Below, one piece after another: positions 35,578-61,112 of a stretch of DNA of 64,000 nt. The notes beneath the pieces were generated by a model, which was not told the origin of the DNA, did no database searches, and was given only the letters and a program-made list of their open reading frames with translations. The stretch's first letter is position 1, and the number at the start of each line of letters is the position of its first letter. The DNA is from Haloarcula halobia (GTDB taxonomy: Archaea; Halobacteriota; Halobacteria; Halobacteriales; Haloarculaceae): the NCBI RefSeq assembly GCF_029338255.1, contig NZ_CP119787.1:1240001-1304000 (forward strand), given 5' to 3'. Both the position numbers and the translations under genes were made by a program.

Positions 35578-36729
35578 ATGAGCCAGGACTTCTACGAGAT
35601 ACTGGGTGTCTCCCGCGACGCCTCTGAGGACGAGATCAAGGAGGCCTACCGGGAGAAAGCCCGGGAGTTCCACCCGGACGTCAGCGACGATCCGAACGCC
35701 GAGGAGAAGTTCAAGAAGGCCAAGAAGGCAAAGGAGGTGCTCACCGACGAGGAGAAGCGCCAGATGTACGACCAGGTGGGCCACGAGCGCTTCGAGCAGG
35801 CCCAGAAGCGCGGTGGCGTCGGTGGCGGCGGCGCCGGCGGGGCCGGCGGCATGGGCGGCGACCCCTTCGGCGGGGCCGGCGGCTTCGACATGCAGGACAT
35901 CTTCGACCAGTTCTTCGGCGGCGGGGGCGGTCGCGGCGGCAATCGACCCCGCCAGGGCCAGGACCTCCAGACGCGCATGGAGATCGACCTCGAGGAGGCC
36001 TACCACGGCGCGAACAAGCAGCTCTCGGTCACGCGCCCGGAGACCTGCGGGGAGTGTGACGGCGCCGGCCACCCGCCCGGGACCGACTCCCGGACCTGTC
36101 CGGAGTGTAACGGCCAGGGACAGACCACCCGCGTCCAGCAGACGCCGATGGGCCGCGTCCAGCAGACGGCGACCTGCCGGCGCTGCGAGGGCGAGGGCGA
36201 ACTCTACGAGGAGACCTGTGGGACCTGCGGCGGCGACGGCGTCGTCCGGAACGAGGCGACCCTGGAGGTCGAGATCCCGGCCGGCATCTCCGACGGACAG
36301 ACCCTCCGGATGGAACGTGAGGGTGCCCCCGGCGAACGCGGCGGGCCCAACGGCGACCTGCTCATCGAGGTCACCGTCCGCGACCACCCGGACTTCGAGC
36401 GCGACGGCGACGACCTCTCTCACCAGCACGCCATCTCGTTCCCGCAGGCGGTCTTCGGCGACACCATCACCGTCCCGACCATCGACGGCGAGGTGGAGGT
36501 CGACGTCCCCGGCGGCACCCAGAGCGGCGAGGTCTTCCGCCTCCAGGGCAAAGGGATGCCCCGCCTGCGCCGCCGCGGCCACGGGGACCTCTACGTCCAG
36601 GTCCAGGTCGTCACGCCCGAGGACCTGAACACGGAACAGCAGGAAGCCCTCGAGCAGTTCGCCGAGGCCGGCGGCGAGGAGGTCGACGTCGAGGAGGGCT
36701 TCTTCGAGAAGCTCAAGAACTCTTTGTAA
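35578..36729 (+). CDS. dnaJ: Chaperone DnaJ
   Basis: A 383-aa type-I J-protein. The J domain (2-70) has HPD at 32-34; a Gly-rich linker (about 80-125) follows; then four CxxCxGxG repeats (CGECDGAG, CPECNGQG, CRRCEGEG, CGTCGGDG) form the zinc finger, and the C-terminal substrate-binding domains follow. It delivers unfolded clients to DnaK and stimulates its ATPase. No dnaK or grpE is in the window. The ATG at 35578 starts the J domain directly. Confidence 0.96.
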   Translation: MSQDFYEILGVSRDASEDEIKEAYREKAREFHPDVSDDPNAEEKFKKAKKAKEVLTDEEKRQMYDQVGHERFEQAQKRGGVGGGGAGGAGGMGGDPFGGAGGFDMQDIFDQFFGGGGGRGGNRPRQGQDLQTRMEIDLEEAYHGANKQLSVTRPETCGECDGAGHPPGTDSRTCPECNGQGQTTRVQQTPMGRVQQTATCRRCEGEGELYEETCGTCGGDGVVRNEATLEVEIPAGISDGQTLRMEREGAPGERGGPNGDLLIEVTVRDHPDFERDGDDLSHQHAISFPQAVFGDTITVPTIDGEVEVDVPGGTQSGEVFRLQGKGMPRLRRRGHGDLYVQVQVVTPEDLNTEQQEALEQFAEAGGEEVDVEEGFFEKLKNSL

Positions 36730-36761: not shown

Positions 36762-36965
36762 GACAGTCAGAAAGCCCCCAAGGGACCAACGGTCCCTCGC
36801 TGCCTTTCAGTCCCGCCCCACGACTGGTGACCAGCCGTTAGCGGGTGGGACTGAAAGGGGCGACCCGCTGGACTCGGGGGACTCGTTGCGCTCCGCACTC
36901 ACGACGTTCGTTGCGGTGCTTACGTCGTCCGCCTTCGTCCAGCGGGTCGGGGCTTTCTGGCTGTT
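36762..36965. repeat. Nested inverted-repeat element downstream of dnaJ
   Basis: About 204 bp with layered palindromes: imperfect outer arms 36762-36778/36949-36965 (15 of 17), hairpin AGGGACC-AAC-GGTCCCT (36781-36797), stem 36803-36818/36843-36858 (15 of 16, the mismatch a possible G-U pair) enclosing CTGGT-G-ACCAG, and perfect 13-bp arms 36861-36873/36937-36949 enclosing a further ACGACGT/ACGTCGT pair. No ORF of note inside. It looks like a non-autonomous mobile element or a highly structured RNA. Confidence 0.75.
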
Positions 36966-37052
36966 CACGTTCGAACCCACTGTTACGCCCATCACTCCAC
37001 CAATCGCGAGCCACTCGTCGCGCTTTTGGCCGTCCCCGCCCAACCGGCGCCC

Positions 37053-37802
37053 ATGCAAACGCTGCGAGAGCTCGTCGCCGCCGGTCGCGAGCGCGAGGGT
37101 GTCCTGTTCACGTCGCCAGAGCGCGCCGCGCCTTACAGTTACCGGGACTTCTGTACGAACGCCTGGAAGGCGGGCAACCTCATGCGCCACTACGGCGTGC
37201 GCCACGGGACCCGCGTCGCGGTGGTCGCCGGACCGAAGAACCCGACCGATGAGGACGAACCCGGTGTGCTCCGTGACGGGCCCGACGCGCTGCTGGCGGT
37301 GCTGGCCGCGACGCTTGACGGCGCCGTCGTCGACCTGGACCCGCCGGGGGCCGTGGACGCGACGGCGCTCGTCTCGCCGGCGAACTGGCTCGACCGGTAC
37401 GAACTGGCACCGGGGACGAAGGCGCTGGCCTACGGCGGGCCCAGCGACGACCCCACGGTGGCGCAGTTCGAGCGCGAACTCTGGAGCGAGAACCCGCTCC
37501 AGCCGCCGGGCGAGGTGGGGCCCGCCGACGCCGCGCTGGCGGGCGACCGGACCTACACCCACGGCGACCTGCTGGCGGCGGCCCAGCGCGTCGTCGAGGA
37601 CTACGGCGTCGACGCCGGGACGGCCGTCGCGCTCCGGGCGCCGGTCACCACCGCGGGCGCGCTCGTCGGCGGCCTCATCGCCCCGATGCGCGTTGGCGCG
37701 ACGGTGCTGCTCGGCGGCGACGAGCCTGCGGACCTCGCGGTCGCACCCGACGACGACGTGCCCGAGTCGACGGTGGTCCGGCCGGCCGACGTCTCAGTGT
37801 GA
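37053..37802 (+). CDS. AMP-binding/acetyl-CoA synthetase-like protein, truncated and without catalytic motifs
   Basis: A 249-aa protein. Its start (TLRELVAAGRERE…YSYRDFCTNAWKAGNLMRHYGV) resembles the N-terminal part of acyl-adenylating enzymes, and a second similar stretch (YTHGDLLAAAQRVVEDYGV) appears later, so it may be an internal duplication. The phosphate-binding loop and adenylation core of real synthetases are absent. It probably does not activate acids; a regulatory or binding role is possible. An ordinary acidic composition and GC3 argue that it is a maintained gene. Confidence 0.65.
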   Translation: MQTLRELVAAGREREGVLFTSPERAAPYSYRDFCTNAWKAGNLMRHYGVRHGTRVAVVAGPKNPTDEDEPGVLRDGPDALLAVLAATLDGAVVDLDPPGAVDATALVSPANWLDRYELAPGTKALAYGGPSDDPTVAQFERELWSENPLQPPGEVGPADAALAGDRTYTHGDLLAAAQRVVEDYGVDAGTAVALRAPVTTAGALVGGLIAPMRVGATVLLGGDEPADLAVAPDDDVPESTVVRPADVSV

Positions 37803-59390: not shown

Positions 59391-59454
59391 GTCCCGTGAA
59401 CCGATGCGCAGCGCGTGTCGGACGCTACTCGTCCAGTTCCTCGCGCAACAACCC
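59391..59454 (-). repeat. Duplicated remnant of the gatB 3' end
   Basis: These bases repeat the segment at 59561-59624 (offset exactly 170 bp) with about four in five identical, including the conserved start GTCCCGTGAACCGA. Translated on the minus strand it ends EGLLREELDE and stop, next to the true gatB end NGLLRDALDE. It therefore is a second, older copy of gatB coding end plus its downstream flank, not a gene by itself. Confidence 0.75.
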
Positions 59455-59570
59455 TTCACAACCACCTTTTTCGTCGTCGGGTTTCCTCGCTCGCTTCGCT
59501 CGCTGCGGGAACCCATCCTCGAAAAACCTGGGGGAAAAAGGCGGGACCTCACTTCGTTCGGTCCCGTGAA

Positions 59571-59591
59571 CCGAAGCGCTGCGCGCTTCGG
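59571..59591 (-). terminator. Hairpin just after gatB
   Basis: CCGAAGCG-CTGCG-CGCTTCGG, a perfect 8-bp stem, sits two bases past the gatB stop codon. Archaeal terminators usually depend on T-runs, none of which follows closely, so a role in mRNA 3' end stability is equally possible. Confidence 0.45.
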
Positions 59592-59594
59592 ATG

Positions 59595-61112
59595 CTACTC
59601 GTCCAACGCGTCCCGAAGCAACCCGTTCACTTCGCCGGGGTCCGCGCTGCCGCCGGTCTTTTGCATCACCTGGCCGACGAGGAAGTTGATGGCGCCGCCC
59701 TCTCCGTCGTCGTAGTCCTGCACGGCGTCGGGGTTCTCCTCGATGGCTTCCTCGACAGCCTGCTGGACGGCGTCGCCGGAGGTCTTGCCCAGGCCCTCGC
59801 GCTCTACGACGGTGTCGGGGTCCTCGCCCTCGTCGAGCATCTGCCGGAGCACGGTCTCGTGGGCGTTCTTCGCGGTGATCTCTTCGTTCGCGACCAGTTC
59901 GACCAGGCGGGTCACCTCGTCGAACCGTCCCGAGACGTCCGTGATCTGCATGTCGCGGTAGTTGAGTTCGCCAAGCAGGTTGTCGGCGACCCACGTCGCC
60001 GCCAGGTCGGCGTCGAACTGCTCGGCGACGTCCTCGAAGAAGTCCGCGACCTGTTTCGTCGAGGTGAGTTTCGATGCGGCCTCCTCGCTGAGGCCGTACT
60101 CGGCGACGAACCGCTCGCGGCGCGCGTCGGGCAGTTCCGGAATCGAGAGTTCCGCCTTCCAGTGGCTGACCCGGAGCGGCGGCAGGTCGGCCTCGCGGAA
60201 GTAGCGGTAGTCCTTCTCCTCCTCTTTCGAGCGCATCGAGACGGTGTTGCCGTGGGTCTCGTTGAAGTGGCGCGTCTCCTGTTCGACGGCGCGGCCCGAC
60301 TCGATGAGTTTGCGCTGGCGCGAGGCCTCGAAGGCCAGGGCCTGCTCGGCACCCTTGTGGCTGGAGATGTTCTTGACCTCGGTACGGTTGGCGTCCGCGA
60401 GGACCGACTCGTCGATGGTCCCGTCGTCGTCCACCTCGCTCGCGTCGACCATCGAGAGGTTGGCGTCGATGCGCAGGCTGCCGTCGCGGGTGGCGTCGAA
60501 GACGCCCAGGTACTCCAGTACTTCCTCGAGCTTCTCGAGGAACGAACGGACCTCCTTGGGGGCGCGGAAGTCGGGCTCGGTGACGACCTCCATCAGGGGC
60601 GTCCCGGCGCGGTTGTAGTCGACGAGCGTGTAGTCGGCCCGGTCGATAGAGCAGGTCCGGGACTCCAGCGGCCCGGTGCCCTCGCGGACGTGCTTGATCG
60701 AGCCGGGGTCCTCTTCGAGGTGGGCCCGCCGGATGGCGACCGAGCGTCGCTCGCCCTCGACGCCGAACTCCAGTTCGCCGTCCTGGCAGATGGGCGCGTC
60801 GTACTGGGTGATCTGGAAGTTCTTGGGCAGGTCGGGGTAGTAGTAGTTCTTCCGGTGGAAGGCGGTCTCCTCGGGGATGTCGGCGTCGATGGCCTTGCCG
60901 ACCTTCACGGCGGCTTCGACGGCCCCCTCGTTGACGACCGGGAGCGCGCCCGGCAGGCCGAGACACACCGGACAGGTGTGGGTGTTGGGGTCGTCGTCGG
61001 CGACGTCGGTCGAACAGCCACAGAATATCTTCGTGTCCGTCTCGAGCTGGACGTGGACCTCCAGCCCGATGACGGCCGCGAGTTCGCCGGACTCGGCGGC
61101 TTGTGCAGTCAT
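59595..61112 (-). CDS. gatB: Aspartyl/glutamyl-tRNA amidotransferase subunit B
   Basis: A 505-aa GatB. It starts with VIGLEVHVQLETDTKIFCGC and has a cysteine-pair zinc site (FCGCS… with CPVCLGLPG), the kinase-like cradle domain, and C-terminal YqeY/tail domain ending GLLRDALDE. It phosphorylates and amidates Glu-tRNA-Gln and/or Asp-tRNA-Asn together with GatA/GatC, which are not in the window. The ATG at 61112 is near-universal for the family. Confidence 0.96.
   Translation of the reverse strand: MTAQAAESGELAAVIGLEVHVQLETDTKIFCGCSTDVADDDPNTHTCPVCLGLPGALPVVNEGAVEAAVKVGKAIDADIPEETAFHRKNYYYPDLPKNFQITQYDAPICQDGELEFGVEGERRSVAIRRAHLEEDPGSIKHVREGTGPLESRTCSIDRADYTLVDYNRAGTPLMEVVTEPDFRAPKEVRSFLEKLEEVLEYLGVFDATRDGSLRIDANLSMVDASEVDDDGTIDESVLADANRTEVKNISSHKGAEQALAFEASRQRKLIESGRAVEQETRHFNETHGNTVSMRSKEEEKDYRYFREADLPPLRVSHWKAELSIPELPDARRERFVAEYGLSEEAASKLTSTKQVADFFEDVAEQFDADLAATWVADNLLGELNYRDMQITDVSGRFDEVTRLVELVANEEITAKNAHETVLRQMLDEGEDPDTVVEREGLGKTSGDAVQQAVEEAIEENPDAVQDYDDGEGGAINFLVGQVMQKTGGSADPGEVNGLLRDALDE

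What the first reader, a model, noticed from the sequence alone, without database searches (positions are those of the whole stretch)
36762..36965. 204-bp nested palindrome element after dnaJ
Five levels of inverted repeats, one 13-bp arm pair perfect and one 16-bp stem with a compensating G-U, fill nearly the whole interval. This density is far above background. It could be a non-autonomous mobile element (outer arms as terminal inverted repeats), or an abundant structured RNA with a role at the dnaJ 3' end.
Basis: seen in the sequence. Interest (0 to 1): 0.6.

Follow-up and report, generated by a model that had tools for sequence, protein, structure and literature searches.

The report
Haloarchaeal inverted-dimer hairpin repeat
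The 204-bp palindrome after dnaJ is a worn copy of a so far unnamed repeat of salt-loving archaea, made of two head-to-head copies of a ~119-nt hairpin whose shape is conserved while its sequence changes freely, with up to 60 or more such hairpins per genome.

Summary
The palindromes are real: none of 939 sampled 204-nt stretches of the window folds as well. They are one copy of a dispersed intergenic repeat family confined, in our sample, to one haloarchaeal order. The unit is a ~119-nt hairpin monomer, [GGGACTGAAAGGGGC]-[variable arm hairpin B]-[GGGGCTTTCTGGCTGTT], mostly present as two monomers pointing outward from a central palindrome. Aligned outward, B shows strong covariation (98.5% of paired cells kept; 258 double-change cells against 78 in shuffles), conserved tandem G.A pairs and a C(GNA)G loop. 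GU exceeds AC (28:7), so one strand is the folded one. It is not in Rfam and I found no paper on it. Some copies sit inside MITEs with the ends of a 697-bp IS6-type element and 8-bp target duplications. The window copy lacks those ends; its right monomer is flipped and its left one worn down. Other copies end in CTAG; the CTAG-to-element distance is a multiple of 3 in 113 of 123 cases, with a purine at every third base. This is unexplained. I read it as a REPIN-like, non-autonomous element with a functional hairpin; RNA or single-stranded DNA is open.

The parts
36762..36965 (.). core element: two head-to-head monomers, from outer arm to outer arm
36763..36778 (.). left outer arm (family consensus AACAGCCAGAAAGCCCC)
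   Evidence: consensus
36949..36964 (.). right outer arm (GGGGCTTTCTGGCTGTT)
36762..36814 (-). left monomer, worn down: arm B replaced by a short AGGGACC-AAC-GGTCCCT hairpin
   Evidence: cmsearch 33.2 bits, E 1.9e-5
36803..36858 (.). central palindrome A (CCTTTCAGTCCCGCCC ... GGGTGGGACTGAAAGG), the junction of the two monomers
36845..36963 (-). right monomer with its B hairpin flipped (100.1 bits on the - strand, 57.7 on the + strand)
36861..36873 (.). 5' arm of the 13-bp perfect B stem (CGACCCGCTGGAC)
36937..36949 (.). 3' arm of the B stem (GTCCAGCGGGTCG)
36966..37010 (-). right outer triplet-phased segment, 45 bp, read toward the element; purine at 13 of 15 first positions; ends at CTCG (37007-37010) where relatives have CTAG
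35578..36729 (+). neighbouring gene dnaJ (not part of the element)
   Evidence: Pfam DnaJ, DnaJ_C, DnaJ_CXXCXGXG
37053..37802 (+). downstream gene, weakly AMP-binding-like (not part of the element)
   Evidence: ORF; PF00501 E 3.5e-4, below cut-off

Best explanation
It is a degenerate copy of a haloarchaeal family of dispersed, non-autonomous, REPIN-like elements. Each full element is an inverted dimer of a ~119-nt hairpin monomer. SHOWN: dispersal; inverted-dimer layout; strand-specific covarying fold with conserved G.A steps; copies packaged between IS6-type transposon ends with 8-bp target duplications; flipping of the arm-bounded inside between species. INFERRED: the hairpin is a recognition signal used as single-stranded DNA by a mobility or host factor; two inverted monomers offer one foldable hairpin on either strand; the palindromes recombine with each other, which swaps and flips arms. 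IS6 transposase acting in trans moves the IS6-ended subset; what spread the CTAG-ended subset is unknown.
For: Dispersed copies: 19 pieces in the own genome, 43 of 60 relatives; the covariance model finds 18 monomers in the own genome and up to 60, the scoring cap, in relatives. Inverted-dimer layout in most loci. Fold: RNAalifold recovers the stems unaided, 21 pairs with double changes; 98.5% of cells paired against 74.9% shuffled, covariation score 0.643 against 0.192 +/- 0.012, slid controls 0.07-0.08. Strand: tandem GA/AG at cols 28/90-29/89, 38/81-39/80, 55/65-56/64 in 31-34 of 34 copies, GNA triloop, GU 28 to AC 7. Mobility: IS6-type ends and perfect 8-bp duplications in 5 loci; same ends and perfect duplications on 697-bp elements in loci fetched with the IS6-family profile PF13610, one enclosing a 211-aa ORF. 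Flipping: L049/L053 and L034/L062; the window's own flipped monomer.
Against: No transposase gene is tied to the CTAG-ended copies: Y1 transposases are absent from several high-copy genomes (G001, G007, G008, G025) and no monomer lies near any Y1 or IS6 gene examined. Predicted folding energy does not favour the outward strand (lower in 87 of 210). RNA is not excluded. The GU/AC bias falls to 16:6 without one column pair.
Confidence: 0.55

Rival explanations
1. A structured RNA element. The monomer acts in transcripts that run through it (e.g. a protein-binding or stability element); the inverted dimer makes it orientation-independent.
For: Covariation, GU over AC on one strand, conserved internal loops; intergenic positions close to genes.
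Against: In tandem gene contexts sense-strand GU 66 against AC 49, no clear bias; hairpin A and outer arms show no strand bias (37/36 and 37/41); C(GNA)G loops with sheared G.A pairs are classic for stable ssDNA hairpins (own knowledge); no Rfam match.
Confidence: 0.33
2. Functionless palindromes whose arms are kept identical by template switching or gene conversion between arms.
For: Arm sequences differ completely between copies while pairing is near perfect (170 distinct arm pairs, 95% WC); arms flip and turn over quickly at orthologous loci.
Against: Arm correction would not conserve unpaired G.A steps, the YAAG/GCA loop and the GNA loop on one strand only, nor favour GU over AC.
Confidence: 0.07
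3. A transcription terminator or 3' processing signal for dnaJ.
For: It lies 33 bp after the dnaJ stop codon.
Against: Of 118 distinct elements 54 are between tandem, 37 between divergent and 9 between convergent genes; most dnaJ loci in the genus have none after dnaJ; no T-run follows the hairpin.
Confidence: 0.05

Closest known systems
IS6-family insertion sequences and their MITEs (PMC7986276)
   Same: A subset of copies has ends GGYAGTGTTTAGTTA/TAACTAAACACTRCC and 8-bp target duplications, matching 697-bp elements with such ends in loci fetched with the IS6-family profile PF13610. The paper gives GG tips and 8-bp repeats for IS6 and mentions two MITEs of 227 and 336 bp.
   Different: Most copies, including the window's, lack these ends; the structured cargo is not derived from the IS.
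REPIN / BIME (REP doublets of bacteria; REPINs: PMC3116915)
   Same: Inverted pair of hairpin monomers, intergenic, many copies per genome, chromosomal.
   Different: Monomer is 119 nt rather than a short REP; no linked Y1 transposase (RAYT) gene found; outer triplet-phased tails.
SMR-A short mobile repeats of Haloquadratum walsbyi (PMC3119063)
   Same: About 110 bp, prominent inverted ends, up to 54 copies, mode of spread unknown.
PATEs of haloarchaea (PMC3119063)
   Same: Palindromic, transposase-free.
   Different: PATEs lack terminal inverted repeats and relate to IS605; these have inverted arms throughout.

Membership tests
IS6-family MITE | IS6-type terminal inverted repeats shared with an autonomous IS6 element | tested here: not met
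   Window copy: no GGYAGTGTTTAGTTA-like end on either flank. Met for other copies of the family.
IS6-family MITE | 8-bp target duplication | tested here: not met
   Not seen at the window copy. 8 of 8 in L022, L031, L072, L073, L084.
REPIN (REP doublet) | two inverted copies of one hairpin sequence | tested here: met
   Minus then plus monomers about 30 bp apart in most loci.
REPIN (REP doublet) | mobilised by a cognate RAYT (Y1 transposase) in the genome | tested here: not met
   G001, G007, G008, G025 have many monomers but no Y1 match; no monomers near 30 Y1 loci. Incomplete assemblies leave some doubt (G007 is 58% complete).
SMR-A | insertion into palindromes of PATE/IS605 elements | not tested
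   SMR sequences not given in the paper text.
PATE | no terminal inverted repeats | tested here: not met
   Outer inverted arms present.
any Rfam RNA family | covariance-model match at gathering score | tested here: not met
   Only a sub-threshold chance hit in the window; only a tRNA in four representative loci.
protein-coding tail (outer segments) | codon-phased, stop-poor, third position most variable | tested here: inconclusive
   Phase and stop depletion met; substitutions by position 59/93/82, first position slowest; not native codon usage.

The most novel reading that the evidence does not exclude
The monomer is a new class of structured nucleic acid in haloarchaea: a conserved G.A-stepped hairpin scaffold followed outward by a variable, triplet-phased tail of about 27-66 nt ending exactly at CTAG. 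The phase would mean that the tail is, or recently was, read in triplets by some machine (the ribosome or another), tying a multicopy repeat to a function not yet described.
Probability: 0.3. Interest if true: 0.85.

Novelty: new variant of a known kind. Interest (0 to 1): 0.62.

Why it matters
Archaea have few well-described families of small dispersed repeats with a demonstrably conserved fold. This one is order-wide, abundant in some species, absent from Rfam and from the papers searched, and can be tested at once in haloarchaeal RNA-seq data. The triplet phasing of its tails (122 of 147 near CTAGs in phase, chi-square p about 2e-36; copies are related, so the p is too small) has no ready explanation and is easy for others to check.

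Tried and rejected
IS1595 (PF12762) as source of the outer ends: no locus of 30 carried a pair of them. RAYT/Y1 transposase partner: not supported. Rfam family: none. Phage or viral origin: no match in phages or viral contigs. Plasmid spread: one weak match, on a 1.16-Mb replicon. Tails as CRISPR-like spacers: a sample of tails had no match in plasmids. Convergent-gene terminator: contexts argue against. Tails as ordinary protein-coding sequence: codon usage and substitution pattern do not fit, and no start codon or long frame was found in either direction. Strand bias of the whole element by gene direction: none. Literature searches for the sequences and for haloarchaeal repeats gave no description of this family.

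Full report
WHAT WAS CHECKED. The window lies on the 3.35-Mb chromosome of a haloarchaeon (G000:C1:1240001-1304000). The lowest of 939 sampled 204-nt windows in the 64 kb reaches -124.8.

COPIES. The query matches 19 pieces at about ten places in the own genome and has matches in 43 of 60 relatives. A pattern of the central palindrome hit only haloarchaeal records among the rows listed. Phages and viral contigs gave nothing, plasmids one weak match on a 1.16-Mb replicon.

ANATOMY. A full element reads: outer arm AACAGCCAGAAAGCCCC, arm hairpin B1, central palindrome A (CCCCTTTCAGTCCCRCCC ... GGGYGGGACTGAAAGGGG), arm hairpin B2, outer arm GGGGCTTTCTGGCTGTT. The B stems differ in sequence between copies but pair within each: 170 distinct arm pairs, 95% Watson-Crick over 12 bp.

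THE MONOMER. Written outward from A, the B hairpins align without gaps and show one conserved fold. RNAalifold finds the same stems unaided, with 21 pairs changed on both sides. On the structure named by me, 98.5% of cells pair (shuffles 74.9%), 258 cells show double changes (shuffles 77.6 +/- 7.7), and the covariation score is 0.643 (shuffles 0.192; slid partners 0.07-0.08). Tandem G.A steps, a YAAG/GCA loop and a C(GNA)G triloop are nearly invariant, and GU exceeds AC 28 to 7 (16 to 6 without column pair 42-78). This makes the outward strand the folded one. It does not say whether as RNA or as ssDNA. The predicted energy of the outward strand is not lower in general. The structure was proposed from these same sequences, so the slid control leans its way, and the relatedness of copies inflates the shuffle test.

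DISTRIBUTION. In 393 genomes drawn across the phylum, 67 are positive and all are in the same order. Monomers are mostly paired, minus strand then plus strand, about 30 bp apart. No Rfam family matches.

MOBILITY. Some copies are flanked by GGYAGTGTTTAGTTA ends; five have perfect 8-bp target duplications. The same ends and perfect 8-bp duplications bound 697-bp elements in loci fetched with the IS6-family profile PF13610. In L169 the element spans 1469-2165 and encloses a 211-aa ORF at 1477-2112, whose translation I did not put to a profile search myself. So this subset is an IS6-type MITE. The own genome shows exact copies of these ends only at two of its elements. IS1595 loci lack them. Y1 transposases do not track copy number.

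THE WINDOW COPY. It lacks IS6-type ends and a target duplication. Its right monomer scores 100.1 bits on the minus strand and 57.7 on the plus strand, so its B hairpin is flipped; its left monomer is a remnant. The closest relative, G013, has an element at the same place with different arms; most other dnaJ loci have none, G007 has a remnant, and G001 has a monomer upstream of dnaJ. Flipping of the arm-bounded inside is seen between other species too. At about twenty orthologous places both species hold an element between flanks 80-96% identical, yet the insides share little sequence.

THE TAILS. Many copies end in CTAG. The distance from CTAG to the outer arm is a multiple of 3 in 113 of 123 cases, varied in length, with a purine at about 75% of first positions read inward, and fewer stops than shuffles (17 against 45.7 +/- 5.6). 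The phase ends exactly at CTAG. It recurs outside the genus, 11 of 11, and overall 122 of 147 near CTAGs are in phase. CTAGs further out also lean to phase (24 of 41), perhaps from tandem units, so that set is not a clean null. Codon usage is not that of native genes and first positions change least, so ordinary coding is not shown. The window copy keeps the phase on its right side: 13 of 15 first positions are purines. I have no tested explanation.

CONTEXT. Of 118 distinct elements, 54 lie between tandem genes, 37 between divergent and 9 between convergent genes, by a simple codon-usage gene call. That speaks against a terminator role.

VERDICT. I favour a REPIN-like non-autonomous element with a functional hairpin, at 0.55, over an RNA role at 0.33. 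The IS6 link of a subset, the fold and the dispersal are shown; the role of the fold and of the tails is inferred or unknown.

Noticed in passing
window 59440-59600: Cluster of small palindromes (GGGTTTCC...GGGAACCC around CTCGCTCGCTTCGCTCGC; GGGACC...GGTCCC; CCGAAGCG...CGCTTCGG); 59484-59508 matches the tip of the monomer model at 19.5 bits, E 0.025.
   Followed up: partly
L034, L049, L073, L097, L123: Smaller paired palindromes (GTTCGAGAGAGC...GCTCTCTCGTGATGACGAAAGACG...CGTCTTTCGAAC) are inserted inside the arms of some elements, a further nested repeat.
   Followed up: no
L043, L066, L347, G002:C1:1225623-1225732: Tandem repeats of the unit outer arm plus CTAG tail, in steps that are mostly multiples of 3.
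   Followed up: partly
L163, L166, L169, L177, L182: 697-bp elements with ends GGYAGTGTTTAGTT...AACTAAACACYRCC in loci fetched with the IS6 profile PF13610; perfect 8-bp duplications in L166, L169, L177.
   Followed up: partly
L103 1238-1365: In G001 a strong monomer (116.5 bits) lies upstream of dnaJ instead of downstream.
   Followed up: no
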